NCBI RefSeq assembly: GCF_002237645.1
Contig: NZ_MJUZ01000011.1
Coordinates: 1-64,000, forward strand
From: Desulfovibrio sp. MES5
GTDB taxonomy: Bacteria > Desulfobacterota > Desulfovibrionia > Desulfovibrionales > Desulfovibrionaceae
Reading direction: 5' to 3'
Length of the DNA stretch: 64,000 nt
The first letter of the stretch is position 1, and each line of letters opens with the position of its first letter. Below, one piece after another: positions 35,169 through 50,861 of this stretch. The position numbers and the translations under genes are program-made. The notes beneath the pieces were generated by a model. It ran no database searches. It saw only the letters and a program-made list of their open reading frames with translations, and had not been told where the DNA came from.

Positions 35169-35238
35169 GGCAAACTCTTTTGGTCCTCGCGGCGTTTGGC
35201 CAGACCGGTACAAAGGTTTGAAAAACGGATAGCCCTGA

Positions 35239-36012
35239 TCAGGCTCCGGCATAAAGCAAGCGGGCCCCGACGCCTTCAAGGGCTTGCCGGGCGTCATGAT
35301 TGAGGCCTTCATCGGTAATGACGCGATAAAAATCTTCCACTCCGGCCACACGCCAGGGGCTGAATTTCGCGTATTTTGAAGAATCGGCCAGAAGAATGCT
35401 TTTGTCCGCGCTGGCCATAAGCTGAATCTTGCGGTGCATCTTCTCCGAAGAGCTGGTGGTCACGCCGTGCTGGGCCCCCCACACGTTGATGCCCACAAAG
35501 GCCACGGTGGTGCGTATGCGGCGCAGATACGCCACAGAGTCAGTATCGTTGCAAGCCCGGCTGATGGGGTCTATCCGCCCCCCGGTAAGAAAAACCTCAA
35601 TATGGGGATGGCCGGAAAGAAGCAGCGCGATTTCAAGATCCGGCGTAACCACGGACAGATTCTTGAATGGCAGTGAAGGCAACAGGCGCGCCAGCTCAAG
35701 GGTGGTCGTGCCCGCGTCAAGGCCGATGAACGAGTCATCCTGTATAAACTCGCATGCGGCACGCGCTATGGCAACCTTTGCCTCCAGCATGCTGCCCGCC
35801 TTGTGGGACCGGGGAATGTCGTGCGCCTCAAACCCCACGGGGACAGCCCCGCCCCAGGTAATTTCAAGCTGCTTTTGCTCTTCCAGCACCTTGAGGTCGC
35901 GGCGTACCGTCATAACAGAAATGCCCAGAGCCTTTGCAAGCTCCCGGCTGTTGACCGCGCCCTGACTCTTGATAAGCCGGGCCATCTTTCTACGGCGTTC
36001 GACTGGCAGCAT
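35239..36012 (-). CDS. DeoR-family transcriptional regulator
   Basis: 257 residues. N-terminal winged HTH (residues 3-55; SRELAKALGISVMTVRRDLK) and a DeoRC sugar-phosphate sensing domain (about 75-240; DAGTTTLELARLLP and SSSEKMHRKI). It probably represses the kinase-dehydrogenase-permease genes until a phosphorylated acid appears. An upstream in-frame TTG at 36057 would lengthen it by 15 residues but falls in the TTTTGTTA repeats. Confidence 0.91.
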   Translation of the reverse strand: MLPVERRRKMARLIKSQGAVNSRELAKALGISVMTVRRDLKVLEEQKQLEITWGGAVPVGFEAHDIPRSHKAGSMLEAKVAIARAACEFIQDDSFIGLDAGTTTLELARLLPSLPFKNLSVVTPDLEIALLLSGHPHIEVFLTGGRIDPISRACNDTDSVAYLRRIRTTVAFVGINVWGAQHGVTTSSSEKMHRKIQLMASADKSILLADSSKYAKFSPWRVAGVEDFYRVITDEGLNHDARQALEGVGARLLYAGA

Positions 36013-36057
36013 GACAAACCCTGCTTCTGTGACAGTTTGATGTTGCTTTTTAGTCAA

Positions 36058-36580: not shown

Positions 36581-37501
36581 CTACTGCCCCAGGCCATATT
36601 TCTTCATTTTTCTGTAAAGAGTCGTTCTGGCGATGCCCAGAGTCTCAGCAGCCTTGCTGATGTTTCCCCCGGCCGCTTCCAGTGTTTTACGAACCATATT
36701 TTCACACAAATCGTCCATGGAGGCATGCCCCGGCGCAATCTCTGGCTGCCCGGCAGCCAGACCCGTCACATTTTTCCCTGAAATATGGCGAGGCAGGCAG
36801 TCAAGCCTGATGGAGGCCCCGTCAGAAAGCACCAGGGCTCTTTCGCACACGTTCTGCAACTCGCGCACGTTGCCCGGCCAGGGATAGGCCTTGAGCATTT
36901 CCACCACGGCAGGCTCAACGGTCACCATGGGCAGGTTCAGCCGCGCGCAAAGCTTGCGCCAGAATGTTTTTGCCAGCAATTCCACGTCCCCTTTACGCTC
37001 GCGCAGGGGAGGCAGTTCAATTTCCAAGACATTGAGGCGGTAATAGAGATCAGACCGAAAAGTTCCCGCCCGCACCTCATCCGCCAGATTTACATTGCCT
37101 GCGGCGATCACACGAAGGTCAAGACGAACGAGGCGATTGCCGCCAAGAGGTGAAAAAGCCATTTCCTGAAGTACGCGCAAAAATTTTGCCTGCACTGCCA
37201 ATGGCAGACTGTTCACCTCATCCAGAAAAAGCGTCCCGCCATTGGCGGCTTCAAGTCGGCCCTTCTGCCCGCCCTTTCGCGCTCCGGTAAAAGCGCCCTC
37301 TTCATAGCCGAATAGTTCGGCTTCGATAAGGTCATTGGGAATGGCTGCGCAGGAAATGCCGACAAAGGGCCGTTCGGGCTCATCTCCGGCATTGTGAATC
37401 GCCTGGGCAAAAAGCTCTTTGCCAGTACCGCTTTCGCCAAAAATAACGATACGCGAGGCCATGCGCGAAGCGCGCCGGGCCAGGTCGATAGCCTGCCGCA
37501 A
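36581..37501 (-). CDS. AAA+ and Fis-HTH part of a sigma-54 activator (after in-frame TGA)
   Basis: This is the distal part of one reading frame running from 38650 to 36581 that is cut by TGA at 37586-37588. The AAA+ domain has Walker A GESGTGKE, the sigma-54 contact loop GAFTGA, Walker B GGTLFLDEVN and the Fis-type HTH at the end (GNISKAAETLGIARTTLY). All look intact. No ATG with a ribosome site lies between the TGA and the AAA+ domain; the frame's first alternative start is the TTG at 37501. Either the protein is made by read-through or restart, or the regulator is dead. Confidence 0.8.
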   Translation of the reverse strand: MRQAIDLARRASRMASRIVIFGESGTGKELFAQAIHNAGDEPERPFVGISCAAIPNDLIEAELFGYEEGAFTGARKGGQKGRLEAANGGTLFLDEVNSLPLAVQAKFLRVLQEMAFSPLGGNRLVRLDLRVIAAGNVNLADEVRAGTFRSDLYYRLNVLEIELPPLRERKGDVELLAKTFWRKLCARLNLPMVTVEPAVVEMLKAYPWPGNVRELQNVCERALVLSDGASIRLDCLPRHISGKNVTGLAAGQPEIAPGHASMDDLCENMVRKTLEAAGGNISKAAETLGIARTTLYRKMKKYGLGQ

Positions 37502-37585
37502 CGCGGGGCTTGCCCCAAGTATGTCTGTGAACTGGTACGTTGCTGTGTGAACCGGCGTGACCTCACGGGTCAGCGGAACAGCCGT

Positions 37586-38650
37586 TCAGGAGGTCGGCGG
37601 CGGCCCGCTGGCAGTTCTGCCCCTGTTTCGTCCGCCTGTGGCAGTCATGTCTGGATTCAGGGCAAGGGCCATGCCCACGGATTTTCCCGCGCTCAGTTCC
37701 ACAGGCGAAAATGTGCAGGCGATGCGTTGCGGCCCCTGGCCTGTGAGGAACGTCAGAGTGTCCTGCCCTTGTCGTTGCCCGGCCAGAGCCCTTTGCAGCC
37801 TTTGAACATCAAGAGAACTCACCAGAGAAACCGCGCTTCTGCCAGGAAGTTCAAGTTCGCCAGACGTGAACAATGTTGACGCATGTTTGTTAGCGTGGGT
37901 GATGCCCCCATTGCCATCAAGCACCAGCAACGGGTAGGTCAGGGAATCGTGGGCATTCCGCAATAAAGCCTCAAGCTTCTGCCCGGTGGTTTCTATGGTC
38001 TGCTGGCGCACGCGCATGCCTATATAGTTGGCAAAAGTCGTCACCAGGGCGAGGGCCATTATCTCGGGGCTGGCAATATTGCCCGAAATGGTCAGCACTG
38101 CCAGAACGCCCGAGGCATCGGCCAGAATGGGAGCAGAAGCGCAGCGCCACGAATGCAGACCGGCATTGTAATGCTCATAGCCGCATATCTGCACCGGACA
38201 ACGCCGTTGCAGCGCCATGCCTATGGCTGAAGCGCCAACCTTGTCGATATTCCTGTCAGCGCCCGGCATGTTGTATTGGGTGCGGGCCACATTCAGCAGA
38301 TCCTTGTCGCCCACGGTAGCAAGAATGTGCCCGGACGAACCCGTAAGAATTGCCATGTGGCCGGTGCCGCTAATGCTCGAATCAAGCATCTCAAGCACCG
38401 GAGCCGCCGCGTTGAGCAACATGGCGGACTGGCTGCACAAGTCGTCAAAGGGCACCCTTTCCAGCACCGGCACTTCGGGAACCCGCACAGGGTCGATGCA
38501 GGCATTGCGACTAAGCAACCAGCCATCCAGGATGTGATCAGGCACACGCCCCCGGATTTCATGGCCATCAATGAAATCCTTCCAGGCTTCGTGAACCGTC
38601 TGCTGATACACGGGATTTTGTGGTGTGAAATCGACCGGAAGACACCTCAT
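37586..38650 (-). CDS. Sensory half of an AcoR-like sigma-54 activator, ending at TGA
   Basis: 354 residues. A GAF-like domain (about 60-200) is followed by a PAS-like domain (about 225-325), as in AcoR and other activators sensing small metabolites. The start has AGGAGG upstream. The frame continues without shift beyond TGA into an AAA+/Fis module, so the natural product should be about 689 residues. The TGA lies in a Pro/Ser/Thr-rich linker where selenocysteine would serve no obvious purpose. Adjacent palindromes and sigma-54 promoters suggest the intact protein controls the hydroxyproline genes. Confidence 0.82.
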   Translation of the reverse strand: MRCLPVDFTPQNPVYQQTVHEAWKDFIDGHEIRGRVPDHILDGWLLSRNACIDPVRVPEVPVLERVPFDDLCSQSAMLLNAAAPVLEMLDSSISGTGHMAILTGSSGHILATVGDKDLLNVARTQYNMPGADRNIDKVGASAIGMALQRRCPVQICGYEHYNAGLHSWRCASAPILADASGVLAVLTISGNIASPEIMALALVTTFANYIGMRVRQQTIETTGQKLEALLRNAHDSLTYPLLVLDGNGGITHANKHASTLFTSGELELPGRSAVSLVSSLDVQRLQRALAGQRQGQDTLTFLTGQGPQRIACTFSPVELSAGKSVGMALALNPDMTATGGRNRGRTASGPPPTS

Positions 38651-38691
38651 GTCGCCATTCCTCCTGATCGTGTAGCGGAAGCAAACACGAC

Positions 38692-38708
38692 TGTAGCGTT
38701 ACGCTACA
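38692..38708. promoter_or_regulatory. Activator palindrome TGTAGC-N5-GCTACA (site 1)
   Basis: TGTAGCGTTACGCTACA is a 6-5-6 palindrome 42 bases upstream of the activator start. It lies about 120 bases upstream of the expected start site of the -24/-12 promoter at 38795. A lone TGTAGC half-site lies at 38671. Confidence 0.72.
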
Positions 38709-38794
38709 ATTATCTTTATATTACCAATCTAAAAAATTTTGTGCAACACAGGCTATCCTGATGGCATCAGTATTTTTTGTACTTCTGTGCAACA

Positions 38795-38811
38795 TTGGCA
38801 GATTTTTTGCT
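38795..38811 (+). promoter_or_regulatory. Sigma-54 promoter for the phosphatase/transporter genes
   Basis: TTGGCAGATTTTTTGCT has GG and GC separated by exactly 10 bases, matching TTGGCACG-N4-TTGC. It lies 250 bases before the IMPase-like gene. Confidence 0.75.
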
Positions 38812-39060
38812 ATTCAATAATAAAATAGATCACTGCCAGCCATAAACACATCTTATTTTTTTGCGAAAAACTTTTACATATTATATTTTCAAATTAATTA
38901 TCCTCAAAAAGATGAAATATGAATATTTTTTATAGAGAATTACATTTACGCATGCCCACGAAACAATCAGGCACAAATGCCTGCTGCAAAACGGCAGTGA
39001 ACGCCTTTGCAGAATCTGCCGGTCTGCATCCTTTCCACCTTTACCGACGGAGACAATGCC

Positions 39061-39855
39061 ATGCCAGAATATGAAGCATTTTTAGATATAGCCATGCGGG
39101 CTGCGGACGTTTCACGCCAGATACTCACTGAGCACAGACAGAAATACCTGCGTGGAAACTATGATTTCAAAACAAAAAACGACGCAAGCCCGGTGACGGA
39201 AACCGATGAGCGCGTGGAGCGTGAGATACGCTCGATCATTTCTGGCGCTTTCCCGGAGCACGGCATGCTTGGCGAGGAATACGGGGCCAACGCCGCCACC
39301 GCCGAATACGTATGGGTGATCGACCCCATCGACGGCACACGGCAGTTCATTGTGGGCTATCCATTTTACGGCACGCTCATTGCCCTGTGCCGCAACGGCA
39401 TACCCGTGCTTGGCGTTGTGGAAATGCCCGTCATGGCTGAACGCTGGGTGGGCGTAAAGGGTCGACAATCCACAGTCAACGGCCTGCCCATACAAACCCG
39501 CCCCCATACTGACCTTGCCACCGCCCTGGTGGCTTCCAGCAATACCGAATTCGTCTTTGATTCAGACAGGGCAGCCTACAATCACCTCATTGCGTCCACC
39601 AAATGGCGCGTCTACGGCGGCGCTTGCTATGGCTACATGAGCCTTGCGGCAGGCAAAATAGACCTCTGCTTTGACAGCGGCATCATGCGTGAAGTGGATT
39701 ATTGCGCTCTTGTGCCCATCATTGAAGGCGCGGGGGGCGTCATGTCCGACTGGGATGGCAACCCTCTGACCATGCACTCCGGCATGCAGGTTCTGGCATG
39801 CGGCGACCACAGGCTGCATGAACAGGTTTTGCGTGAAATCAAGGCACATCGCTAG
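39061..39855 (+). CDS. Inositol-monophosphatase-superfamily phosphatase (HisN-like)
   Basis: 264 residues. Metal and substrate motifs: GEEYG (about 75-79), WVIDPIDGTRQFIVG (about 88-102), and DYCALVPIIEGAGG near 220, where the usual WDxAAG is altered. Such enzymes remove phosphate from inositol phosphate, histidinol phosphate or other small phosphoesters. The start has GGAGA upstream; a longer frame from 39007 is not needed. It stands directly behind a sigma-54 promoter and upstream of an organophosphate-type transporter. Its TAG stop lies in the tip of repeat B2. Confidence 0.86.
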   Translation: MPEYEAFLDIAMRAADVSRQILTEHRQKYLRGNYDFKTKNDASPVTETDERVEREIRSIISGAFPEHGMLGEEYGANAATAEYVWVIDPIDGTRQFIVGYPFYGTLIALCRNGIPVLGVVEMPVMAERWVGVKGRQSTVNGLPIQTRPHTDLATALVASSNTEFVFDSDRAAYNHLIASTKWRVYGGACYGYMSLAAGKIDLCFDSGIMREVDYCALVPIIEGAGGVMSDWDGNPLTMHSGMQVLACGDHRLHEQVLREIKAHR

Positions 39856-40002
39856 AGCGGATTCCCTTTGAGAACATACATCCGCAAAGCTTTGCACACG
39901 CCAGCCCCGCGCTTGACAGCGCAGGCAAGCGGCGTTCACCGCTTCACGGCGGGCGTCAGCTTACGCAATCGCCAGAGCAATCTTTATGTGACGTTGCTCT
40001 AG
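39852..40002. repeat. Intergenic repeat family B, copy 2
   Basis: 151 bases from CTAGAGCGGATT to GTTGCTCTAG. It aligns with copy 3 at 45529-45679. The first CTAG includes the stop codon of the phosphatase gene. Confidence 0.78.
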
Positions 40003-40044
40003 CCATTCGATAGCGTACCCGCCCATCTTGCACAAGGATACGCC

Positions 40045-41355
40045 ATGTTAGACTTCTTTAAGGCCTCACCTGCGCGCCCGGTTACCAAGAGTTCAGAAGA
40101 AATAGACAAAGACTATGCCTATTGGCGCATACACATGATGGCGTCCATATGGCTTGGTTACGCCATTTTTTACTTTACCCGCAACAGTTACAAGTCCATC
40201 ATGCCAGCCATGCTCAAGGATCTTGACTGGCAGCTCTCGGACGTTGGCATCCTGAGCACCATTTTCTATATTGTTTACGGCTCGTCACGCTTTCTGGGCG
40301 GCATCATAAGCGACAAGTCCAATCCCCGATATTTCATGGGCGTTGGGCTCATCATCACAGGCATCATCAACATTGCCTTCGGCATGAGTTCGTCCCTGCT
40401 GGCGCTGGCCATTCTGTGGGGACTCAACGCCTTCTTTCAGGGCTGGGGCTGGCCGCCCTGCACCAAGATTCTCACCACATGGTACTCGCGCAACGAACGC
40501 GGCTTCTGGTGGGCCGTGTGCAACACCTCGCACAACGTGGGCGGAGCCATCATTCCGTTGCTCGCGGGATGGCTGGCCATACACTACGGCTGGCGCTACG
40601 GCATGATCATCCCGGGCATCATAGGCATTGTGGCGGGCGTCATTCTTTGCATCGTCATGCGTGACAGGCCGGAATCTATGGGATTGCCCAAGGTGGGCGA
40701 ATGGCGCAAGGACCAGCTGGAGCTTGAACAGGTCAAGAAAAGCGAAAGCTCGCTCACCACATGGCAGGTGTTGCGCCTTTACGTCTTCACCAACAAATAC
40801 ATCTGGCTTCTGGCCATCTCCTATGTGCTTGTGTACGTCGTGCGCATCGGCGTCAACGATTGGGCCAACATGTACCTTGTGAAGGAACATGGCGTTGATC
40901 TGCTTGTGGCCAACAGCGCCATCACCATGCTTGAGATCGGCGGCTTCATCGGAACCATCGTCGCCGGATGGGGATCGGACAAGCTGTTCAAGGGCAACCG
41001 CATCCCGATGAACATCATTTTCATGCTGGGCATCATGTGCTCTGTGGGCGCGCTCTGGCTTCTGCCCCTGAGTTCCAAAATTGCCCTTGGCTCCGTATTT
41101 TTTCTGATCGGCTTTTTCATCTTTGGCCCTCAGATGCTCACCGGCATGGCCGCCGCCGAAGTCTGCCACAAGGAATACGCGGGCACGGCCACAGGCTTTG
41201 TAGGACTTTTCGGATATCTGGGAGCCGCCTGCACCGGTCTGCCGCTGGCAATGGTCATTGAAACCACAAGCTGGAACGGATTCTTCATCGTCATGACCGC
41301 AGCATCGCTGCTTTCGGCCATACTTATTGTGCCCATCATTGGTGGAAAGAAATAG
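40045..41355 (+). CDS. MFS transporter of the organophosphate:phosphate antiporter type
   Basis: 436 residues, 12 membrane segments. OPA-family (GlpT/UhpT/UhpC/PgtP) features include YFTRNSYKSIMPAM near the first helix and the GWPPCTKILTTWYSRNERG loop. Substrates of the family are phosphorylated C3-C6 compounds exchanged for phosphate. Paired with a phosphatase, it might import a phosphoester and release its carbon skeleton, but the sigma-54 site links both genes with the hydroxyproline regulon. AAGGAT precedes the ATG. Confidence 0.88.
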   Translation: MLDFFKASPARPVTKSSEEIDKDYAYWRIHMMASIWLGYAIFYFTRNSYKSIMPAMLKDLDWQLSDVGILSTIFYIVYGSSRFLGGIISDKSNPRYFMGVGLIITGIINIAFGMSSSLLALAILWGLNAFFQGWGWPPCTKILTTWYSRNERGFWWAVCNTSHNVGGAIIPLLAGWLAIHYGWRYGMIIPGIIGIVAGVILCIVMRDRPESMGLPKVGEWRKDQLELEQVKKSESSLTTWQVLRLYVFTNKYIWLLAISYVLVYVVRIGVNDWANMYLVKEHGVDLLVANSAITMLEIGGFIGTIVAGWGSDKLFKGNRIPMNIIFMLGIMCSVGALWLLPLSSKIALGSVFFLIGFFIFGPQMLTGMAAAEVCHKEYAGTATGFVGLFGYLGAACTGLPLAMVIETTSWNGFFIVMTAASLLSAILIVPIIGGKK

Positions 41356-41364
41356 ATTCTGACA

Positions 41365-41387
41365 AGGTGTAGCACAAGGCTACACCT
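41365..41387. promoter_or_regulatory. Activator palindrome (site 2)
   Basis: AGGTGTAGC, five bases, GCTACACCT: a perfect 9-bp inverted repeat with the TGTAGC-N5-GCTACA core of site 1. Further TGTAG half-sites follow at 41387 and 41412. It is about 130 bases upstream of the start site expected from the promoter at 41487. Confidence 0.75.
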
Positions 41388-41486
41388 GTAGTATTGTGAC
41401 GCATCAAAATCTGTAGCGTGCCGCACGCAGACAAAAAAGCAACCCAAAACAGCCATATTTTCTACGTACTTATATTTTATCTACTG

Positions 41487-41503
41487 TTGGTAGCTTTTTT
41501 GCT
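41487..41503 (+). promoter_or_regulatory. Sigma-54 promoter of the hydroxyproline operon
   Basis: TTGGTAGCTTTTTTGCT has the GG-N10-GC spacing of -24/-12 promoters. It lies 33 bases before the DapA-family gene, and its upstream palindrome is at 41365-41387. Confidence 0.78.
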
Positions 41504-41536
41504 AGAGCCGATGCACAAACATCCAATGGAGGATAC

Positions 41537-42424
41537 ATGAACAACATTCACGGTATTTTCGCAGTAACGGTGACGCACTTTAATCAGGACGGCAGCATCG
41601 ACTACGGCGCTATATCCAAACATATCCAGTGGCTGCTCAAATCCGGCGTACACGGCATCATGCCCGTGGGAGCCACTGGCGAATGGCCGGCGCTTTCCAC
41701 CGACGAACGCAAGCAGGTTGCCGAATTCACCATGAAGGAAGTAAACGGCAAGGTTCCGGTGATTGTGGGAGCCATTTCGCCCAACGTCGATGTTTCGGTT
41801 GAACTGTCAAAACATGCGGGGTCCATAGGCGCTGCGGGCGTCATGATTCTTCCTCCTCCCGCCGTGCATCCCAGCCAGCATGAAATTTATGAATTCTACA
41901 AATACATTTCCGGCAAAAGTCCCCTGCCGGTAATGGTTTACAACAATCCCGGCAGCTGCGGCGTGGCCGTGTCGCCTGAAACTCTGGTAAAGTGCGCCCA
42001 ATTGCCCAACATGGGCTTTCTTAAAGAATCCAGCGGCGACATCATGCGACTGACCCGTTCTGTGGACGAGGTGGGCGACAAATTGGTGGTTTTCTGCGGA
42101 TGCGAAAGCCTGGCCTATGAAAGTTTTGTCATGGGCGCCAAGGCCTGGGTTTGCGTGCTTGCCAACATTGCCCCCGCCATGTGCGTCAAGCTGTACAACC
42201 TTATTGTCAAAGAAAACAAACTTGACGAGGCCCGGCAGGTATACCGGCAGATGCTGCCCTTGCTGCGTCTGCTTGAAGACACTGGCGAGCTCTGGCAGGT
42301 GGTCAAACACGCGCTTGCGCTCAAGGGATTCGGGACAGGCACTCTGCGCATGCCCCGGCAGCCCATTTCTGAAGAAGTGCGCGTTGAACTTGAAAAAATT
42401 CTCAAACAGGCCGACTTTTGCTAG
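41537..42424 (+). CDS. DapA-family deaminase/lyase (hydroxyproline pathway)
   Basis: 295 residues of the DHDPS/NAL superfamily: GATGEWPALSTDER near 48-61, the catalytic Tyr in VMVYNNPG, and the Schiff-base Lys in GFLKESSGD. A lysine-synthesis role is unlikely because it is followed by dehydrogenase, aldehyde dehydrogenase and racemase genes. In this setting the family acts as pyrroline-4-hydroxy-2-carboxylate deaminase, giving 2-oxoglutarate semialdehyde. It is the first gene behind the sigma-54 promoter; GGAGG precedes the ATG. Confidence 0.86.
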   Translation: MNNIHGIFAVTVTHFNQDGSIDYGAISKHIQWLLKSGVHGIMPVGATGEWPALSTDERKQVAEFTMKEVNGKVPVIVGAISPNVDVSVELSKHAGSIGAAGVMILPPPAVHPSQHEIYEFYKYISGKSPLPVMVYNNPGSCGVAVSPETLVKCAQLPNMGFLKESSGDIMRLTRSVDEVGDKLVVFCGCESLAYESFVMGAKAWVCVLANIAPAMCVKLYNLIVKENKLDEARQVYRQMLPLLRLLEDTGELWQVVKHALALKGFGTGTLRMPRQPISEEVRVELEKILKQADFC

Positions 42425-42497
42425 CCTTTTTCATGAGGGGCGGCTTCGGTCAGCCCCTCATGCACATATCAGAGAAACTGAAGCAAAGGGAACAACC

Positions 42498-43703
42498 ATG
42501 AGCAGCAAACGCACCGCCGGAGCCGTTGTCATCGGCGGGGGGGCGGTAGGTACCGCTGTGGCCTGCTATCTTGCCATGGACGGGGTTGATGTGACCCTTG
42601 TTGAGCGTGGCGAGTTTGCCTGGGGATCCAGCCGCCGTTGCGATGGGCATGTGGTCACCTATGACACGCCGCCCGGCGCATACAGCCAGTTCTGCAAATA
42701 CGGGCAGGACATGTTTCATGATGCAGCAAAGTTTCTGCCCGTGGATTTCGAGTTTTCGCCCGAAGGGCTCGGACTGCTGGTTGATGACGAACGGGATCTC
42801 GACACTGTGCGCGCCAACTATGAAGGCAAGAAAAATGAGGGCATTGACGTCACCCTGTGGGACAGGGACGATCTGCGCCACCATGAGCCGAATATTGGCG
42901 ACAGTATTCTGGCCTGCCTGAATTTCAACGGCGACTGCAAGCTTAATCCCATGCGTCTTTGTCAGGGGCTGGCCCTGCATGCGGAGGCCAACGGCGCCAC
43001 CCTCATGACCAGAACCAGCGTCACTGGCCTGCGCACCGACGGGGGGCGGATCACCACTGTTGAAACGGACAAGGGACTCATCCAGACAGAGAACGTCATT
43101 CTTGCCGCAGGCGTCTGGACGCCCCTGCTTGCCGACATGGTGGGCCTTGCCGTTCCCGTCAGACCACGGCAGGGGCATGTTGTCGTGACCGAGCGCGTAC
43201 GCAATCTGGTGGGCAAAAACTATGCGGAATATGGCTACCTTCTGGCAAAGGGCGGCAAGACGCGCAGCAATGCCACGCCAGAAATGGAGCACTTTGGCGT
43301 TGCCTTTGTGCTTGAGCCCTCCCACGCGGGAACAATCCTGCTTGGCAGCAGCCGCCGCTACGTTGGCATGAACATCCGCCCCGATCCCAGGGTCATGCGC
43401 ATTATCGCCCAACGCGCCCGCCATTTCTACCCTGCCCTGGCAGATACGAGAGTCATCCGCTGTTATGCGGGCTTGCGCCCCTGTACCCCGGACGCCAAGC
43501 CCATCATTTCGCCCACACCTCTTCAGGGGCTTTTTGTGGCCACCGGACATGAGGGAAACGGCATAGGCCTTTCACTCATTACGGGCAAACTCATTTCAGA
43601 AATGGTGCGCGGGCAGGCTCCTTTCATGGACATCAGCTACATGGGCCTCGACAGATTCGGCTCTGGCGCTGCGGCACTTTCTGCCACAACAACCACCGCC
43701 TGA
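42498..43703 (+). CDS. FAD-dependent D-hydroxyproline/D-amino-acid dehydrogenase subunit
   Basis: 401 residues of the DadA/sarcosine-oxidase-beta group (DAO family). Dinucleotide-binding GGGAVGTAVACYLA lies near residues 14-27, and the C-terminal FAD loop contains GHEGNGIGLSLITGKL. The next two genes encode a small [2Fe-2S] subunit and an FAD/[2Fe-2S] subunit, so it is the substrate-oxidising subunit of a hetero-oligomeric membrane-independent dehydrogenase (LhpBEF or HcnABC/opine-oxidase style). Substrate cis-4-hydroxy-D-proline is inferred from the neighbours. Confidence 0.86.
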   Translation: MSSKRTAGAVVIGGGAVGTAVACYLAMDGVDVTLVERGEFAWGSSRRCDGHVVTYDTPPGAYSQFCKYGQDMFHDAAKFLPVDFEFSPEGLGLLVDDERDLDTVRANYEGKKNEGIDVTLWDRDDLRHHEPNIGDSILACLNFNGDCKLNPMRLCQGLALHAEANGATLMTRTSVTGLRTDGGRITTVETDKGLIQTENVILAAGVWTPLLADMVGLAVPVRPRQGHVVVTERVRNLVGKNYAEYGYLLAKGGKTRSNATPEMEHFGVAFVLEPSHAGTILLGSSRRYVGMNIRPDPRVMRIIAQRARHFYPALADTRVIRCYAGLRPCTPDAKPIISPTPLQGLFVATGHEGNGIGLSLITGKLISEMVRGQAPFMDISYMGLDRFGSGAAALSATTTTA

Positions 43704-43714
43704 GGAGGACAATC

Positions 43715-44026
43715 GTGTTTGCCAAAACCACCCCTTCTGCGGGCAGGCAGGTGACCATTTATTTTGAAGGCCAACCCCTTGAGGTTGAAGAAGGCATATC
43801 CGTAGCCGCCGCTGTACTTGGTCCGTCGCACGGCTGGACACGCACCACACATGGCGGCCACAAGCGTGGTCCATATTGCCAGATGGGCGTTTGCTTTGAA
43901 TGCCTCATGACCATTAACGGCGTCCCCAACCAGCAGGCCTGCCTCGTTCCTGTGGCTGAGGGCATGCGGGTGAACCGCCAGAATGGGGTTCCCGACTTCG
44001 GCAAGGAGGGCTGCAATCATGCGTAG
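43715..44026 (+). CDS. Small [2Fe-2S] ferredoxin-like subunit
   Basis: 103 residues, GTG start with GAGGAG upstream. The cysteine set CQMGVCFECLM plus a later Cys (NQQACLVP) matches the Fer2_4 subunits of D-hydroxyproline dehydrogenase and hydrogen-cyanide-synthase-type oxidases. It passes electrons between the two flavoprotein subunits. The last eight bases overlap the start of the next gene, so the subunits are translationally coupled. Confidence 0.9.
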   Translation: MFAKTTPSAGRQVTIYFEGQPLEVEEGISVAAAVLGPSHGWTRTTHGGHKRGPYCQMGVCFECLMTINGVPNQQACLVPVAEGMRVNRQNGVPDFGKEGCNHA

Positions 44027-45407
44027 CGCATGGGACGTAATTATTGTCGGCGCTGGCCCCGCAGGCATGTGCGCAGCCATCGAAACAGCACGCCAGGGGC
44101 TGCACACGCTGGTGCTTGACCGGCAAAGCGAACCCGGCGGTCAGATATTCAGAAGTGTCGGCTCCTCTGCCCTCGTTAACCGTCTTGGTTCAGACTATTC
44201 TGCCGGTCGGCCGCTGGTGGAAGAATTCAAGAACTGCGGCGCGACGTTTCTGCCAAGCGCAAACGTGTGGGACATAGCCCCGGACAGGGTATATTTCAGC
44301 GTACAGGGCCAAAGCCGCTGCATGACTGCCCGGCAGGTTGTGCTCGCCACAGGAGCTATGGAGCGCCCTGTTCCACTGCCAGGCTGGACCCTGCCCGGAG
44401 TTATGGGCTCCGGGGCTTCGGATATTCTGCTCAAGTCAGCCGCGCTGTTGCCCCAGGGCCCTGTGGTGCTGTGCGGCAACGGCCCGCTCATTCTTCAGGC
44501 TGCGGTGCATATGCGCCACTTCAAGGTTCCGGTGGCTGGCGTGCTGTTCACGGGCAGGATCAGCAACCTGCTGCGGGCCATGAAACATATTACCGGCGCC
44601 CTGGCCCGTCCCGGGTATTTTTTGCACGGCATCGGCATGGCCGCACAAACCGTTTTCTCGCAAAAATGTACCTTTGCCGCACGCGACCTCAGTGTAGAAC
44701 AGGTTGAAACAGAGCGTCTGAACATAAAGTTCACCAGCATGAGCGGCAGCAAAAAAAGCCTTCAGGCCGCAACAGTGCTGCTGCATGAGGGCGTCATTTC
44801 CGAAAGCCGCATTACCCGACTGGCCCGATGCCGCCATACCTGGGATGAACGCCAGCGCTACTGGCATGCAAGTGCCGATGAATGGGGCCAGACCAGCGTG
44901 CCAGGCATTCGCACGGCGGGCGACGTGGCCCGTGTGCGTGGCGCGGCAGCCGCACAGGCTGAAGGCCGTCTGGTCGGCCTGGACGTCTGCCACGAACTGG
45001 GTCGCCTGAACATGAACGAACGCAACCGGCTTGCAGATTCCCATATGCGCATTGTCAGGCGTTGCCGGGCCTTGCAGCCCTTTCTTGATGAATACTTCGC
45101 CCCTACGCCATCTCTGTTGCAGCCAGCTGATGATGCCGTGGTCTGCCGCTGCGAAGAACTCACAGCACAGGACCTTCAGCAGACCATCAAACAAGGGTGC
45201 TTTTCGCCAGATGGTCTCAAGGCCCAGGCCCGTCCCGGCATGGGCACCTGCCAGGGCCGCATGTGCGGACAGGCAGTGGCCGAAATGATCGCCCATACTC
45301 AGGGGCTGCCGCTGGATCAGTTGCCGCAGTACACGGCCCAACCGCCGCTCTTTCCCCTGAACCTGGGCGAGTTGGCGGACATGCCAATGCCCCCTGACCT
45401 CAGCTAG
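44019..45407 (+). CDS. FAD/NAD(P)-type subunit with BFD-like [2Fe-2S] domain
   Basis: 462 residues. N-terminal FAD-binding GAGPAGMCAAIETA (about 10-23), central second nucleotide site VVLCGNGPLILQAAVH, and a C-terminal BFD-like [2Fe-2S] domain with CRCEELTAQDL and MGTCQGRMC. This is the alpha-type subunit of three-component D-hydroxyproline dehydrogenases or HcnB-like enzymes. The start is the ATG with AAGGAGGG upstream, overlapping the previous gene. Its TAG stop (45405-45407) is part of the CTAG tip of repeat A2. Confidence 0.88.
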   Translation: MRSAWDVIIVGAGPAGMCAAIETARQGLHTLVLDRQSEPGGQIFRSVGSSALVNRLGSDYSAGRPLVEEFKNCGATFLPSANVWDIAPDRVYFSVQGQSRCMTARQVVLATGAMERPVPLPGWTLPGVMGSGASDILLKSAALLPQGPVVLCGNGPLILQAAVHMRHFKVPVAGVLFTGRISNLLRAMKHITGALARPGYFLHGIGMAAQTVFSQKCTFAARDLSVEQVETERLNIKFTSMSGSKKSLQAATVLLHEGVISESRITRLARCRHTWDERQRYWHASADEWGQTSVPGIRTAGDVARVRGAAAAQAEGRLVGLDVCHELGRLNMNERNRLADSHMRIVRRCRALQPFLDEYFAPTPSLLQPADDAVVCRCEELTAQDLQQTIKQGCFSPDGLKAQARPGMGTCQGRMCGQAVAEMIAHTQGLPLDQLPQYTAQPPLFPLNLGELADMPMPPDLS

Positions 45408-45532
45408 AGCATTGAACATTTGAAATGCTTGCTTACGGCAGCCAAAAGCCTGCCTGTTCGCATTTCGTGGCAAGGATTTTCAGGAAAATCCTTGCAGAGC
45501 AGTTACCTCATTGCATTCGTAAACTGCTCTAG
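45404..45532. repeat. Intergenic repeat family A, copy 2
   Basis: 129 bases, CTAGAGCATT ... ACTGCTCTAG. It is highly similar to 33712-33840, including GCTTACGGCAG, AAAAGCCTGCC and the CAAGGATTTTC hairpin. It shares its final CTAG with the start of repeat B3. Confidence 0.82.
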
Positions 45533-45679
45533 AGCGGATTGCTGTCGAGAACATGCAGCAGCAACGTTTTCGACACGCCCGCTACAGCGCTTAACAGCGC
45601 AGACAAACTGCGCGTGCGCCTTCACGGCCAGCGCCTGCTCACGCAGCCGCCTCAGTGATTTCGAAATGAAATTGCTCTA
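45529..45679. repeat. Intergenic repeat family B, copy 3
   Basis: 151 bases from CTAGAGCGGATT to ATTGCTCTA, the same length as copy 2. It abuts repeat A2 so that the two fill the whole gap between the dehydrogenase and aldehyde dehydrogenase genes. Confidence 0.8.
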
Positions 45680-45711
45680 ACCGCAAAGGCTTTTACAAGA
45701 GGAGAAACCCA

Positions 45712-47214
45712 ATGTCTCAATTCCTTACCTGCCAGGAGTACGAAAATCTGGCGGCCAACCTGAAATATCCCACCCTGGCCTTCATTGGCGGCAAATTTGT
45801 TCCTGCCGTTTCGGGCAAAACCTTTGCCACCATCAACCCCGCCACAGGCAAAGAACTGGCTCAGGTTGCAAGCTGCGGCAAAGAAGACGTGGACAAGGCC
45901 GTGGCTGTGGCCCGCAAAACCTTTGATTCCGGGGTGTGGTCCAAGATGCACCCCACTGAACGTAAAAAAATATTTCTCAAACTTTGCGGCCTGATGGAAA
46001 AACACATGGTCGAGCTTGCTGTGCTTGAAAGCATCGACAGCGGCAAGCCCATCCGCGAAAACCTGTGCACCGACCTGCCTGAAACCATCGAATGCCTGGA
46101 GTGGCATGCCGAATTCAGCGACAAGCAGTACGGCAGCACCTCGCCTTCCGGCAACCTCAAGCGCGGACTTATCATACGGGAACCGGCAGGCGTTGTTGCC
46201 TGCGTGTTGCCCTGGAACTTTCCCCTGCAGATGGTCGGGTGGAAGCTTGGCCCCGCTCTTTCCGAAGGCAACAGCGTCATCATAAAACCCGCCAGCGTCA
46301 CCTGCCTTTCAACGCTGCGACTGGCCGAACTGGCGGCAGAGGCCGGGGTTCCCGAAGGCGTGCTTCAAGTGTTGCCCGGCCCCGGCGGCCTTGTGGGCGA
46401 AGCCCTGGGCCGCCACATGGATATCGACGTTCTCTCGTTCACCGGCTCCACCGATGTGGGCCGCCTCTTTCTGCAGTACTCCGCCGAAAGCAATCTCAAG
46501 CGTGTGGTGCTGGAGCTCGGCGGCAAAAGCCCCTTTGTGCTGCTTGAAGACTTTACGGACTTCGAGTTCGCCGCAAGCCATGCCTGCTCCGCCGCATTCT
46601 GGAATATGGGCGAAAACTGCACCGCCAATTCGCGCATTATCGTGCCCGCGAGTAAAAAAGACGCCTTTTTGGACGCTTTTGTGGCTAGCCTCAGTGAATG
46701 GCGGATGGGCAACCCCCTTGATCCCGCCAATGCGCTGGGGTCAATGGTCAGCGAGCAGCAGTTCAAGACTGTCATGGGCTATATTGAAAAGGGCAAAGCC
46801 GAAGGCGGGCGCATTGTCACGGGTGGCAAAGCTGCCGCCATCGGCAGCGGCCTTTTCATCGAGCCCACGATTTTTGACAATGTGAAGCGCGATGCCACAG
46901 TGGTGCGCGAAGAGATATTCGGCCCTGTTACGGCCATCCTTACAGCCACTTCTGATGAAGACGCGCTGGCCATGGCCAACGACACCTGCTACGGCCTGCA
47001 CGGCTCCATCTTCACCGAATCGCTGACCAAGGCGCACGCCTTTGCCAGTGAACTCAAGGCGGGCACCGTGTCCGTCAACTGTTTCAGCGAAGGCGACAAT
47101 ACAACGCCCTTTGGCGGATACAAGCTTTCCGGTTTCGGCGGCAAGGACAAGGGGCGCGAGTCTCACGACCAGTACACCGAGCAGAAAACAATATTCATAA
47201 ATCTTGACAGGTAG
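45712..47214 (+). CDS. Aldehyde dehydrogenase (PuuC/2-oxoglutarate-semialdehyde type)
   Basis: 500 residues. Catalytic Glu in VLELGGKSPF and Cys in NMGENCTANSRI (near residue 303); the PWNFP and FTGST nucleotide loops are present. In this operon it should oxidise 2-oxoglutarate semialdehyde, the product of the DapA-family enzyme, to 2-oxoglutarate. By sequence it is close to gamma-glutamyl-aminobutyraldehyde dehydrogenase PuuC, so specificity is inferred from context. The 304-base gap upstream is filled by repeats A2 and B3. Confidence 0.9.
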   Translation: MSQFLTCQEYENLAANLKYPTLAFIGGKFVPAVSGKTFATINPATGKELAQVASCGKEDVDKAVAVARKTFDSGVWSKMHPTERKKIFLKLCGLMEKHMVELAVLESIDSGKPIRENLCTDLPETIECLEWHAEFSDKQYGSTSPSGNLKRGLIIREPAGVVACVLPWNFPLQMVGWKLGPALSEGNSVIIKPASVTCLSTLRLAELAAEAGVPEGVLQVLPGPGGLVGEALGRHMDIDVLSFTGSTDVGRLFLQYSAESNLKRVVLELGGKSPFVLLEDFTDFEFAASHACSAAFWNMGENCTANSRIIVPASKKDAFLDAFVASLSEWRMGNPLDPANALGSMVSEQQFKTVMGYIEKGKAEGGRIVTGGKAAAIGSGLFIEPTIFDNVKRDATVVREEIFGPVTAILTATSDEDALAMANDTCYGLHGSIFTESLTKAHAFASELKAGTVSVNCFSEGDNTTPFGGYKLSGFGGKDKGRESHDQYTEQKTIFINLDR

Positions 47215-47285
47215 CCACGACAGGCCTGGCCAGTCCGCCGGATGCGGAACTGGCCAGGCCAAGCCATAACTCAAGAGGAGCCGCC

Positions 47286-48293
47286 ATGAAACTGTCTCAC
47301 ATGATCCAGACTATTGACACCCATACGGCTGGCAATCCCACACGCAATGTGGTGGCTGGTTGCCCTGCCGTTCAGGGAACAACCATGCAGGAGAAAATGG
47401 CCTACGCCATAGAACACCTCGACTGGCTCATAAGCTCTCTCATGCTCGAACCGCGCGGGCACAGCAACATGTCAGGCACCATATGGGTTCCCCCCTGCAA
47501 TCCTGAAGCTCATATGGGCATACTGTTCATTGATGCTGGCGGACTTATGCCGATGTGCGGACACAGCACCATAGGCTGCGTCACCGCCATGCTTGAAAGC
47601 GGAACGATCATTCCTGAAGGCGAAGTGTGCAACGTCAATATCGACACCCCCGCCGGTCTGGTGCGAACCAGAGCGGAAATGAAGGACGGCAAGGTAACTC
47701 GCGTAACCTTTCGCAATGTTCCCTCCTTTCTGTTCTGTTCCGGCACGGTCGACGTGCCCGGCATAGGCGAGGTGCCCTACGACGTGGCCTATGGCGGCAA
47801 TACATATGCCATTACTGACGCCAAATATTTTCCTGGCCTGAACCTGCGCTCCGGCTACCGATCCATCATTGAAAAAGCCGCCCAGGCATTTGGTGGGGCC
47901 GTGCGCAAGGCCGTGGACTTCAAACATCCGGAACAGCCCTTTATCAATGTCATCACCCACGTGATGTTCTACACCACACCTGACGATCCCAAGGCCACGT
48001 ACCGTAACACAGTGGTTTTCTTGCCAGACTCCCTCGACCGCTCGCCTTGCGGCACTGGCACTTCCGCACGCGTGGCTTCACTCTTTGCCAAGGGCGAACT
48101 GGGCCTGAACCAGGAATTCGTGCATGAGAGCGTCATCGGCACCCAGTTCACGGCGAGAATTGTGGAGCCAGCCACAGTGGGCCCCTGCAAGGGCGGCGTG
48201 CCGGAGGTCAGTGGAACCGCCTATCTTACTGGTTTCCACAAGTTTGTTATTGACCCTTCGGACGCGCTTGCCAAGGGATTCAGGCTGGATTAG
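47286..48293 (+). CDS. Proline-racemase-family epimerase (4-hydroxyproline 2-epimerase-like)
   Basis: 335 residues. Two catalytic cysteines are in MCGHSTIG (near residue 91) and SPCGTGTSA (near 257). That is the Cys/Cys pair of proline racemase and 4-hydroxyproline epimerase; dehydratase members replace one of them. It would convert trans-4-hydroxy-L-proline to cis-4-hydroxy-D-proline, the entry step of the pathway encoded upstream. GAGGAG precedes the ATG. Confidence 0.92.
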   Translation: MKLSHMIQTIDTHTAGNPTRNVVAGCPAVQGTTMQEKMAYAIEHLDWLISSLMLEPRGHSNMSGTIWVPPCNPEAHMGILFIDAGGLMPMCGHSTIGCVTAMLESGTIIPEGEVCNVNIDTPAGLVRTRAEMKDGKVTRVTFRNVPSFLFCSGTVDVPGIGEVPYDVAYGGNTYAITDAKYFPGLNLRSGYRSIIEKAAQAFGGAVRKAVDFKHPEQPFINVITHVMFYTTPDDPKATYRNTVVFLPDSLDRSPCGTGTSARVASLFAKGELGLNQEFVHESVIGTQFTARIVEPATVGPCKGGVPEVSGTAYLTGFHKFVIDPSDALAKGFRLD

Positions 48294-48347
48294 GGCAGAA
48301 GGCCTTTGGACGGGCGTACCCAATGTTTGCTCCACGCCCGTCACGCT

Positions 48348-48399
48348 GACGAACAGCGCAGACGAACAGCGTAGACGAACAGCGTAGACGAGCAGCGAA
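48348..48399 (+). repeat. Four tandem 13-bp units
   Basis: GACGAACAGCGCA, then GACGAACAGCGTA twice, then GACGAGCAGCGAA, in direct contact. Probably slippage within a decayed repeat B (CAGCGCAGAC is a B motif). Confidence 0.8.
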
Positions 48400-48780
48400 A
48401 CAAACCGCGCGATCACTTCAGGGCACCGCCTGTTTATGCGAGCGACCGGAGAGATGTAGCGTGAGATTGCGCTGACCGCGAGCCGCCTTGAAAAACCTGC
48501 ACTGCTTTGAGGGATGAACCCCGCAGGAAAAATGAAAAGCGTTGTGCCTGCGCCCATCCGCAAACACCTTCAGACATGACAGAGCACCTCTTTGTTTTTG
48601 ACACAGGCTTTGCGCCAGAATTTGCGCCATTCCCACTCCCCCGGCGCAAAGCCTGTGCAGTACAAACATTTTCGTCCTGCGCCGCGTCCCTAGATTTTGA
48701 TCTGCAGGACAATGCGTGAAGGACGACATGCGCAAATATTCAGTCCGCCGCCAGCACACAATGAAAAAGATGCGCCGCCT

Positions 48781-48829
48781 GCTCTAACGCTGCACGAAAG
48801 TGCAGAGCGCCACAACGTGGCGTGGATTC
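48781..48829 (-). repeat. Intergenic repeat family C, copy 3 (inverted)
   Basis: The minus strand reads GAATCCACGCCACGTTGTGG ... GTGCAGCGTTAGAGC, matching copies 1 and 2. Confidence 0.65.
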
Positions 48830-48885
48830 ATCGGCTGTATGAAAACTTTGAAGTGTGAAGCAGGTCAAAGGTAATCTGCTCTGGA

Positions 48886-48964
48886 TCAGACAAACTGCGC
48901 CTACGCCCACACGGCGAGCGTATGTTTGCGCGGCGGCCAGGGCAATTGCAAAGTGGATTGCTCC
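48886..48964 (+). repeat. Intergenic repeat family B, copy 5 (partial)
   Basis: CAGACAAACTGCGC ... CACGGCGAGCG ... GATTGCTCC aligns with the right half of copy 3. Confidence 0.55.
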
Positions 48965-49070
48965 ATTTTTTCTCTCATCGCGGGGCGTGGCGCGTCATGT
49001 CAAAGAGTGCTTACGCAAAAACATATACAAAATAGTATCACCACACAGCATTGTTTCAAATAAGTACATT

Positions 49071-49087
49071 TGTAGCATTTTGCTGCG
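49071..49087. promoter_or_regulatory. Degenerate activator palindrome (site 3)
   Basis: TGTAGCATTTTGCTGCG fits TGTAGC-N5-GCTACA except for the last three bases. It is about 100 bases upstream of the start site expected from the promoter at 49150. Confidence 0.55.
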
Positions 49088-49149
49088 TTGCAATAATCTG
49101 ATGCTTATGAGCGCATTTTTATAATTTAATTATTGCAGGCAGTTTCGTT

Positions 49150-49167
49150 ATGGCAACATTTTTGCAA
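49150..49167 (+). promoter_or_regulatory. Sigma-54 promoter of the amino-acid permease gene
   Basis: ATGGCAACATTTTTGCAA contains GG and GC separated by 10 bases, with the TTTTTGC end seen in the other two promoters. It lies 126 bases before the permease ATG. Confidence 0.7.
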
Positions 49168-49292: not shown

Positions 49293-50861
49293 ATGGCTGA
49301 ACAAGGGAAATTCAAAAAAGAATTGAATACCACAGACCTCACGTTTGTGGCACTGGGGGCTATCTTTGGATCCGGGTGGTTGTTTGGAGCAAGTTATGTC
49401 GCGCAATATGCGGGACCTGCCGGGATCTTTTCTTGGATCATAGGTGGTATCACAGTATTCTTTCTTGGCCTTGTGTACTGTGAACTTGGCGCGGCCTTGC
49501 CCAAGGCTGGCGGCATCATTCGCTTTCCTGTTTTTTCTCACGGGGAGCTTGTCGGGTATCTGCTTGCATCATTGACCGTCATTGCCTTTTCAAGCCTCAT
49601 CGCCATAGAAGTGGTGGCTGCACGCCAATATGCCGCAGCCTGGCTGCCCTGGCTCACGGCGGACGCCTCCGGTTCACCTACCCTGGCGGGCTGGATAGCC
49701 CAACTTTTGCTGACGGTCTTTTTCTTTGTAATCAACTATAACGGCGTCAAATCTTTTGCCATCGCCAACAACATCATCAGTCTCTTCAAGTTTGTGGTCC
49801 CCGCGCTGGTGATGGTTGTTCTGATGTACTATTTCAAGCCGGAAAACCTGACGTCGCATGGTTTTGCACCCTTTGGAAGCCACGGCGTGCAAATGGCGGT
49901 GACCGCCGGGGGCGTCATCTTTGCCTACCTTGGCCTGACACCAGTGGTTTCAGTGGCCAGCGAGGTAAAAAATCCCCAGCGCACCATTCCCATTGCCCTG
50001 CTGCTGTCCATCGTGCTTTCCACCATCATATACATTGTCCTGCAACTGGTTTTTCTGGGCAGCATTCCCCCGGACATGCTTTCTGAAGGCTGGGGCAGCA
50101 TAGCCGCAAAGTTTTCGCTTCCCTACCATGACATCGCCTTACTGCTGGGTCTTGGCTGGCTGGGCATTCTTGTGGTGGCCGATGCGGTCATCTCCCCCGC
50201 TGGCACCGGCAATATATATATGGTCGCCACTCCACGGGTGATATACGCCTGGTCGCGGAGCGGCACGTTCTTTGACCGCTTTTCCGCTGTGGACAAAAAA
50301 TCGGGCATCCCCCGTCCCGCGCTTTGGCTCACGCTGGCTCTTTCCATATTCTGGACCATGCCCTTCCCCTCCTGGAAGGAACTTATCAACGTGGTTTCCG
50401 GCGCTCTGTGCCTCAGCTATGCGCTTGCCCCCATTGCCTGCGGCGCGCTGCGCATAAACGCCCCTGATCTGCCCCGTCCCTTCCGTGTACGCGGACTGGA
50501 AATCATATCGCCGCTGACCTTCATCATTGCGTCCCTTATCGTGTACTGGTCAGGATGGAGCGTCATCTGCTGGCTGTTCCCCATCGAAATAGTGCTGTTT
50601 GTCGCCTACATTCTTGCCAGTCAAAAAGTACCCACCCAGCACGTAAGCCTGCAGCAGCAAATCAAGTCATCCCTCTGGCTTGTGGGCTACTATATAATGA
50701 CCTTGATCATTTCCTATCTTGGATCCTTCGGGGGCAAGGGGATTCTGACCGCGCCCTGGGATGTGGTCGCCATGGGTCTCGTGGCTTTGGTTTGTTATTA
50801 TTGGGCCATGAAAACATGCCTGCCAACGGCCAATATTACCGAAGCTCCCGACGCTGATTAA
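49293..50861 (+). CDS. APC-family amino-acid permease
   Basis: 522 residues, about 12-13 membrane segments. N-terminal TFVALGAIFGSGWLFGASY is the APC substrate-binding unwound helix; SEVKNPQRTIPIALL is the conserved loop. It probably imports hydroxyproline or proline for the operon upstream, because it has the same sigma-54 promoter type and a related palindrome. Substrate not proven. GGGAGG precedes the ATG. A strong terminator follows. Confidence 0.88.
   Translation: MAEQGKFKKELNTTDLTFVALGAIFGSGWLFGASYVAQYAGPAGIFSWIIGGITVFFLGLVYCELGAALPKAGGIIRFPVFSHGELVGYLLASLTVIAFSSLIAIEVVAARQYAAAWLPWLTADASGSPTLAGWIAQLLLTVFFFVINYNGVKSFAIANNIISLFKFVVPALVMVVLMYYFKPENLTSHGFAPFGSHGVQMAVTAGGVIFAYLGLTPVVSVASEVKNPQRTIPIALLLSIVLSTIIYIVLQLVFLGSIPPDMLSEGWGSIAAKFSLPYHDIALLLGLGWLGILVVADAVISPAGTGNIYMVATPRVIYAWSRSGTFFDRFSAVDKKSGIPRPALWLTLALSIFWTMPFPSWKELINVVSGALCLSYALAPIACGALRINAPDLPRPFRVRGLEIISPLTFIIASLIVYWSGWSVICWLFPIEIVLFVAYILASQKVPTQHVSLQQQIKSSLWLVGYYIMTLIISYLGSFGGKGILTAPWDVVAMGLVALVCYYWAMKTCLPTANITEAPDAD

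What the first reader, a model, noticed from the sequence alone, without database searches (positions are those of the whole stretch)
38692..49167. Three sigma-54 promoters, each with the same upstream palindrome, define a local hydroxyproline regulon
Promoters at 38795, 41487 and 49150 all keep GG-N10-GC and a T-rich -12 side. Each has a TGTAGC-N5-GCTACA-type site about 100-140 bp upstream (38692, 41365, degenerate at 49071), the usual enhancer distance. They precede the phosphatase/OPA transporter genes, the catabolic operon and the APC permease. A sigma-54 activator gene lies at one end. The site has a clear consensus that can be searched genome-wide.
Basis: partly seen in the sequence, partly recalled or inferred. 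Interest (0 to 1): 0.85.

Follow-up and report, generated by a model that had tools for sequence, protein, structure and literature searches.

The report
Hydroxyproline regulon with stop-interrupted activator
A sulfate-reducing bacterium appears to switch on its hydroxyproline-breakdown genes through matching control sites, and the gene for the switch itself carries a stop signal in its middle that four related species have all kept, so the cell may read through it in a special way.

Summary
Two exact copies of TGTAGC-N5-GCTACA (38692, 41368) and a degenerate one (49071) lie 80-120 bp upstream of three GG-N10-GC promoters; the genome has no other exact copy. Sites are conserved in relatives and move with their genes, and the adjacent activator co-occurs with the epimerase gene. 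This is a local sigma-54 regulon of a known kind (TGT-N11-ACA enhancer, PrdR-like activator).

An in-frame TGA (37586-37588) separates the activator's PAS half from its AAA+/DNA-binding half. All four close orthologs (sensor half 78-100% identical) have TGA there, within a linker insertion that 8 distant homologs lack. Both halves are under equally strong purifying selection, and no start codon (ATG, GTG, TTG, CTG) shared by all four precedes the conserved beginning of the AAA+ half. A hairpin with loop CGUGA begins its loop 18 nt after the UGA, the register of one formate dehydrogenase SECIS type in these genomes, which have tRNA-Sec.

Best reading: the UGA is decoded (selenocysteine or leaky readthrough), giving sensor-only and full-length activator from one gene. 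A split two-protein activator is the main rival. Decoding is inferred, not shown; hairpin evidence is suggestive only.

The parts
37589..38650 (-). activator, sensor half (354 codons; PAS domain at residues 235-336)
37586..37588 (-). in-frame TGA between sensor and motor halves, conserved in 4 of 4 close orthologs
37555..37574 (-). hairpin downstream of the UGA (loop CGUGA begins 18 nt after the UGA)
   Evidence: covariation weak
36581..37585 (-). activator, AAA+ sigma-54 interaction domain and Fis-type HTH, ending with TAG
38692..38708 (.). palindrome TGTAGCGTTACGCTACA between activator and phosphatase gene
38671..38687 (.). weaker tandem site (3 mismatches), 21 bp from the exact one
38796..38811 (+). 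sigma-54 type promoter before the phosphatase gene
39061..39855 (+). inositol-monophosphatase family phosphatase (near HisN type, below its cut-off)
40045..41355 (+). OPA-type MFS transporter, UhpC subfamily
41368..41384 (.). palindrome TGTAGCACAAGGCTACA upstream of the catabolic operon
41488..41503 (+). sigma-54 type promoter of the catabolic operon
41537..42424 (+). DapA-family protein, probable pyrroline-hydroxy-carboxylate deaminase
42489..43703 (+). FAD-dependent oxidoreductase (DAO family), probable D-hydroxyproline dehydrogenase subunit
43715..44026 (+). 2Fe-2S protein, probable dehydrogenase subunit
43983..45407 (+). FAD/BFD-type [2Fe-2S] oxidoreductase, probable dehydrogenase subunit
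45712..47214 (+). aldehyde dehydrogenase, probable alpha-ketoglutaric semialdehyde dehydrogenase
47286..48293 (+). proline racemase / hydroxyproline epimerase family protein
49071..49087 (.). degenerate palindrome TGTAGCATTTTGCTGCG upstream of the permease
49151..49166 (+). sigma-54 type promoter of the permease gene
49293..50861 (+). APC-type amino acid permease

Best explanation
A one-component sigma-54 activator (PAS sensor, AAA+ motor, Fis-type HTH; its motor half is closest to PrdR) binds palindromic enhancers TGTAGC-N5-GCTACA 80-120 bp upstream of three -24/-12 promoters and, on sensing hydroxyproline or a related imino acid, turns on import and breakdown. The copy beside its own start probably also controls its own synthesis. 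In this species and three relatives the gene holds an in-frame UGA in a linker insertion between sensor and motor. Ribosomes decode that UGA part of the time, as selenocysteine helped by the hairpin 18 nt downstream or by near-cognate readthrough, so one mRNA gives a sensor-only protein and a smaller amount of full-length activator. Shown by computation: sites, conservation, co-occurrence, conserved TGA, selection on both halves. Inferred: binding, ligand, decoding of the UGA and its consequence.
For: Sites and promoters. Sites stay with genes in rearranged G082. Co-occurrence: the 8 genomes with the best activator matches (of 288) are 8 of the 9 genomes with the epimerase-family protein at 49% identity or more. 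TGA at the same place in 4 of 4 close orthologs with the frame open on both sides. dN/dS G000-G082: 0.078 before and 0.059 after the TGA, dS about 1.5. Of 26 flanking codons 2 are invariant in the four, and the TGA is. Codon-position pattern of coding sequence directly after the TGA (5, 2, 10 differences at positions 1, 2, 3) though no ATG, GTG, TTG or CTG shared by all four precedes it. tRNA-Sec in 10 of 10 genomes tested; in-frame TGA in formate dehydrogenase-type genes of 4 of 4 and SelD of 6 of 6 genomes tested. Hairpin in the register of formate dehydrogenase L067, energy within the range of 8 known selenoprotein UGA contexts.
Against: No protein, binding or start-site data. The UGA lies in a variable linker with no Cys homolog, unlike usual selenoproteins. 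The stem is 5-6 bp without a bulge, while SelD hairpins here reach 8-10. Covariation is one pair and not beyond shuffles (116 of 500). Synonymous shuffles reach stem plus G23-U24 in 2.4-4.1%, and the stem alone in 12-15%. Loose hairpin criteria are met by 4.3% of window TGAs with GU in the loop and 19.5% without that demand. Rfam finds no SECIS in 37400-37750. G198 has the catabolic genes but no activator was found (genome 69% complete). A TTG at codon +29 is common to all four and could start a shortened AAA+ protein.
Confidence: 0.55

Rival explanations
1. Split activator. The UGA is a true stop, and the AAA+/HTH half is made as a second protein from the same mRNA by reinitiation at a weak start. 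Sensor and motor act in trans, as recalled for PspF, which has no sensor domain of its own.
For: Both halves conserved separately. G017 and G113 have GTG and TTG 3 and 4 codons after the TGA, G000 has CTG at 5, and all four share TTG at 29.
Against: G082 has no ATG, GTG, TTG or CTG before +29, and none before +29 is shared by all four. Starting at +29 would drop the conserved DILGAS motif, although the stretch before it shows coding constraint. The shared TTG is not special: 6 Leu columns in the gene are TTG in all four.
Confidence: 0.28
2. The activator is an early pseudogene and the sites are served by another enhancer-binding protein, or no longer used.
For: A stop codon is present, neighbouring genes are broken in G017, and the genome has other activators with a similar sensor half (C41 and C1).
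Against: dN/dS of the downstream half 0.05-0.08 in all five pairs compared (AAA segment), no second premature stop in 4 genomes, sites conserved, co-occurrence with the catabolic genes.
Confidence: 0.07
3. The palindromes bind a different regulator, or act as terminators or structural repeats, and the GG-N10-GC elements are chance.
For: 37 equally good GG-N10-GC elements in the window; Desulfovibrio cuneatus has an exact palindrome before its separate aldehyde dehydrogenase without a GG-N10-GC element.
Against: Palindrome and promoter blocks are conserved together at the dapA-like and permease genes in four genomes, and TGT-N10-12-ACA is the usual enhancer form for such activators.
Confidence: 0.08

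Closest known systems
PrdR, sigma-54 activator of D-proline reductase genes (Clostridiales)
   Same: The AAA+/HTH half has PrdR as its best NCBIfam match (374 bits); enhancer of the TGT-N10-12-ACA class upstream of a sigma-54 promoter; imino-acid catabolism (PMC6615313, passages).
   Different: Below the PrdR cut-off (795 bits); controls epimerase, dehydrogenase and deaminase genes; in-frame UGA.
Desulfovibrio vulgaris sigma-54 regulons (Kazakov et al. 2015, PMC4641369; outline, section 6, passages)
   Same: Small local regulons; motifs of TGT and ACA half-sites 9, 11 or 12 bp apart.
   Different: The only 'proline' passage found there concerns an amino-acid substitution, so no hydroxyproline regulon was seen in the main text.
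Known hydroxyproline regulators: GntR-type HypR and LhpR of Pseudomonas aeruginosa
   Same: Control epimerase, D-Hyp dehydrogenase and deaminase genes (PMC6608401, passages).
   Different: HypR is a GntR repressor; LhpR is called AraC family in PMC6608401 while PMC8694187 lists a PAS domain for it (passages). I did not compare sequences.
Bacterial selenoproteins (formate dehydrogenase, SelD)
   Same: In-frame UGA followed by a hairpin, in genomes with tRNA-Sec.
   Different: No redox motif and no Cys homolog; UGA in a variable linker; no sigma-54 activator among the 87 families of PMC9312934 Table 1.
Conserved in-frame stops in bacterial genes (Belinky et al. 2021, PMC7918605; abstract and passages)
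   Same: dN/dS well below 1 downstream of the stop suggests readthrough.
   Different: Here the stop is kept across dS of about 1.5 and in an insertion between two domains of a regulator; that paper expects many to be short-lived.

Membership tests
Sigma-54 enhancer-binding protein and its regulon | AAA+ sigma-54 interaction domain with GAFTGA motif and Fis-type HTH | tested here: met
   Pfam 207 bits for Sigma54_activat and 52 for HTH_8; GAFTGA read in the alignment
Sigma-54 enhancer-binding protein and its regulon | upstream palindromic enhancers and GG-N10-GC promoters | tested here: met
   by sequence and conservation only
Sigma-54 enhancer-binding protein and its regulon | binding of the enhancer and sigma-54 dependent start sites | not testable with these tools
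   needs EMSA and 5'-end mapping
PrdR family | NCBIfam equivalog cut-off (NF041552) | tested here: not met
   374 of 795 bits, given the downstream half alone
trans-4-hydroxyproline catabolic operon | epimerase, dehydrogenase subunits, DapA-family deaminase and aldehyde dehydrogenase together | tested here: met
   families; pathway as in PMC6608401
trans-4-hydroxyproline catabolic operon | epimerase specific for hydroxyproline | tested here: inconclusive
   332.6 bits against a cut-off of 376 for one 4-hydroxyproline epimerase model and 349.1 against 556 for proline racemase
Bacterial selenoprotein | in-frame UGA conserved in orthologs, with coding sequence on both sides | tested here: met
   4 of 4 close orthologs; dN/dS 0.078 and 0.059
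Bacterial selenoprotein | Sec machinery in the genome | tested here: met
   tRNA-Sec 10 of 10, SelD 6 of 6; SelA and SelB not searched
Bacterial selenoprotein | SECIS hairpin downstream of the UGA | tested here: inconclusive
   right register and energy, but weak covariation, modest shuffles, no Rfam match
Bacterial selenoprotein | Cys homologs at the Sec position | tested here: not met
   position lies in an insertion absent from 8 of 8 distant homologs aligned
Bacterial selenoprotein | selenocysteine in the protein | not testable with these tools
   needs mass spectrometry or 75Se labelling

The most novel reading that the evidence does not exclude
The activator is a sigma-54 enhancer-binding protein made through selenocysteine insertion. 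The UGA would be a gate rather than a catalytic residue: the motor half is added only when Sec-tRNA is available, so selenium status sets the ratio of sensor-only to full-length activator and hence hydroxyproline use.
Probability: 0.28. Interest if true: 0.85.

Novelty: new variant of a known kind. Interest (0 to 1): 0.62.

Why it matters
The regulon adds a sigma-54 activator with a defined enhancer to hydroxyproline catabolism, where the regulators named in the passages I read are GntR or AraC types. The conserved in-frame UGA matters more: if decoded, a transcription activator is dosed by translational recoding, possibly by selenium, and automatic annotation would probably call it two genes or a pseudogene. 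A simple reporter can test it.

Tried and rejected
The relaxed palindrome search (3 mismatches) gave chance numbers. The 5 one-mismatch copies elsewhere in the genome were set aside as regulon members because they lie within long open frames; for C32:138964 a score-11 promoter-like element 144 bp downstream leaves a doubt. Two scans of genome contigs for further orthologs gave none and one, Desulfovibrio cuneatus DSM 11391, whose contig length equals that of G134:C1. Searches of 395 phylum and 348 order genomes at E <= 1e-35 gave no further copy with a frame ending at this place; three short frames (G011, G467, G722) begin or end near contig ends and were not examined. Rfam on 37400-37750 gave no SECIS match. 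A sequencing error was rejected because four genomes share the TGA. PMC8264665 was looked into and not used.
Full report
What was claimed. Three sigma-54 promoters, each with the same upstream palindrome, form a local hydroxyproline regulon with an activator gene at one end.

Check of the observation. TGTAGC-N5-GCTACA is exact at 38692 and 41368 and has two mismatches at 49071. The promoters are TGGCAGATTTTTTGCT (38796), TGGTAGCTTTTTTGCT (41488) and TGGCAACATTTTTGCA (49151), scoring 10, 9 and 10 of 12 against a recalled consensus, 104, 120 and 80 bp downstream of the site starts. Exact copies appeared in 0 of 300 Markov shuffles of the window. The whole genome (3.47 Mb, 52 contigs) has no further exact copy and 5 with one mismatch, against 3 for the control pattern; all 5 lie within stop-to-stop frames of 235 codons or more, though one (C32:138964) has a score-11 promoter-like element 144 bp downstream. 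Cautions: with three mismatches the pattern is at chance level, and the window holds 37 GG-N10-GC elements scoring 9 or more. The third site and the promoters therefore rest on conservation.

Conservation. In G017 and G113 (same genus) all three sites and promoters are kept. In G082 gene order differs, with the activator beyond the permease, and no tblastn hit to the phosphatase or OPA transporter was found in 53.7 kb. Yet the dapA-like gene, the permease and the activator each keep a palindrome (0, 1 and 0 mismatches). The dapA-like and permease promoters are kept, while no GG-N10-GC element was found beside the activator. This suggests that the site at the activator also serves autoregulation. 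G293 has the activator beside the operon with one 2-mismatch site.

Co-occurrence. Of 288 family genomes, the 8 with the best activator matches (E <= 3.8e-44) are G000, G017, G113, G082, G134, G162, G163 and G293; the next, G044 (8.6e-36), has no epimerase hit. The epimerase-family protein at 49% identity or more is in those 8 and in G198, which is 69% complete and whose 18.5-kb contig with the genes shows no activator. Six more genomes hold family members at 35-42% identity and no comparable activator.

The activator. Pfam finds a PAS domain in the upstream half and a sigma-54 AAA+ domain with Fis-type HTH downstream. Both halves are in one frame, separated by TGA at 37586-37588. In G017 and G113 (92% in the sensor half) and G082 (78%) the TGA is at the same place, and the frame runs on to the HTH with no other stop. 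The more distant matches listed have open frames of 657-789 codons, except G011 (310), whose contig is only 3.3 kb. The UGA sits in an insertion of roughly 18-20 residues in the PAS-AAA+ linker that 8 of 8 distant homologs aligned lack.

Selection. Nei-Gojobori dN/dS for G000-G082 is 0.078 in the sensor half and 0.059 in the AAA+ segment, with dS about 1.5; over the five pairs compared the AAA+ segment gives 0.053-0.084. Short segments are noisier: 0.10-0.69 directly after the TGA. Of 26 codons flanking the TGA, 2 are invariant in all four, and the TGA is. The 31 codons starting 8 after the TGA differ by 5, 2 and 10 at codon positions 1, 2 and 3 (G000-G082), and the 24 codons before it by 13, 10 and 11, so translation seems to cover the stretch after the TGA. 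Before codon +29, G000 offers only CTG (+5) and an Ile codon, G082 only an Ile codon, G017 and G113 GTG and TTG; TTG at +29 is common to all. Decoding of the UGA is the simplest explanation; reinitiation is the rival.

Selenocysteine? All 10 genomes tested have tRNA-Sec over the cut-off. Molybdopterin (formate dehydrogenase type) genes with one in-frame TGA occur in 4 of 4 genomes (11 of 14 matches), and SelD with one TGA in 6 of 6. In the formate dehydrogenase of L067 the loop begins 18 nt after the UGA: GTGGCC-GGTCT-GGCCAC. The activator hairpin has that register, with 5, 5, 5 and 6 bp, loop CGTGA and G23-U24; 2 of 2085 window TGA triplets meet this, one being this TGA itself. Its local energy (-7.6 to -10.0) lies in the range of 8 known selenoprotein UGA contexts (-7.0 to -15.6) and in the lowest 1.3-6.0% of window TGAs. 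HysA of G006 has a similar loop, CGTGC.

Against selenocysteine: SelD, HysA and other formate dehydrogenase types here use other registers, and the SelD stems are longer. Covariation is one pair, reached by 116 of 500 shuffles. Synonymous shuffles reach stem plus G23-U24 in 2.4-4.1% and the stem alone in 12-15%. Loose criteria are met by 4.3% of TGAs, or 19.5% without asking for GU. No Cys homolog exists and Rfam shows no SECIS. Selenocysteine is possible, not shown; a catalytic role is unlikely.

Literature. PMC4641369 (outline, section 6, passages) gives TGT/ACA half-site motifs for Desulfovibrio activators, and PMC6615313 (passages) the same class for PrdR. PMC9312934 (passages and Table 1) lists 87 prokaryotic selenoprotein families, none a sigma-54 activator. 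PMC12013277 (passages) adds nine families; its main text has no occurrence of 'regulator' or 'sigma'. PMC1914089 (passages) reports a TetR-type regulator with in-frame TAG. PMC7918605 (abstract, passages) reports widespread in-frame stops under purifying selection. Hydroxyproline regulators: PMC6608401 (passages) and PMC8694187 (passages). The listings of searches showed me no paper on a recoded enhancer-binding protein; they are capped lists, and the library holds open papers only.

Verdict. By comparative evidence the regulon is real and of a known kind. The new element is the conserved UGA inside its activator.

Noticed in passing
window 29893-36057: Minus-strand genes that look like glycerate kinase, GntP-type permease, PdxA-like protein, DUF1537-type kinase and DeoR regulator, a possible four-carbon acid sugar cluster beside the locus (read from the ORF list; family names recalled, not scanned).
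   Followed up: no
L019 (G017:C1:220000-239500), phosphatase and OPA-transporter region: Both genes appear broken in G017: the phosphatase matches over 135 of 282 residues and the transporter in four overlapping pieces, while the rest of the locus is intact.
   Followed up: partly
L049/L064 (G082), APC permease: The permease matches in two pieces overlapping at residues 358-363 in different frames, which suggests a frameshift or an assembly error.
   Followed up: no
L079:11957-12006 (Desulfovibrio cuneatus): A separate aldehyde dehydrogenase gene (start about 12146) has an exact palindrome and a 2-mismatch one upstream, but no GG-N10-GC element was found there.
   Followed up: partly
window 38736-38752: A further block, TTGTGCAACAC, is conserved in four genomes between the activator and the phosphatase promoter; it may hold an extra half-site or part of the activator's own promoter.
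   Followed up: no
L007 (G000:C32:137464-140480), 1501-1660: A one-mismatch palindrome with a score-11 promoter-like element 144 bp downstream, both inside a 1005-codon open frame of the other strand.
   Followed up: partly
window 48294-49070: An interval of about 0.8 kb between epimerase and permease sites holds no assigned gene; its length is similar in G017 and G113.
   Followed up: no
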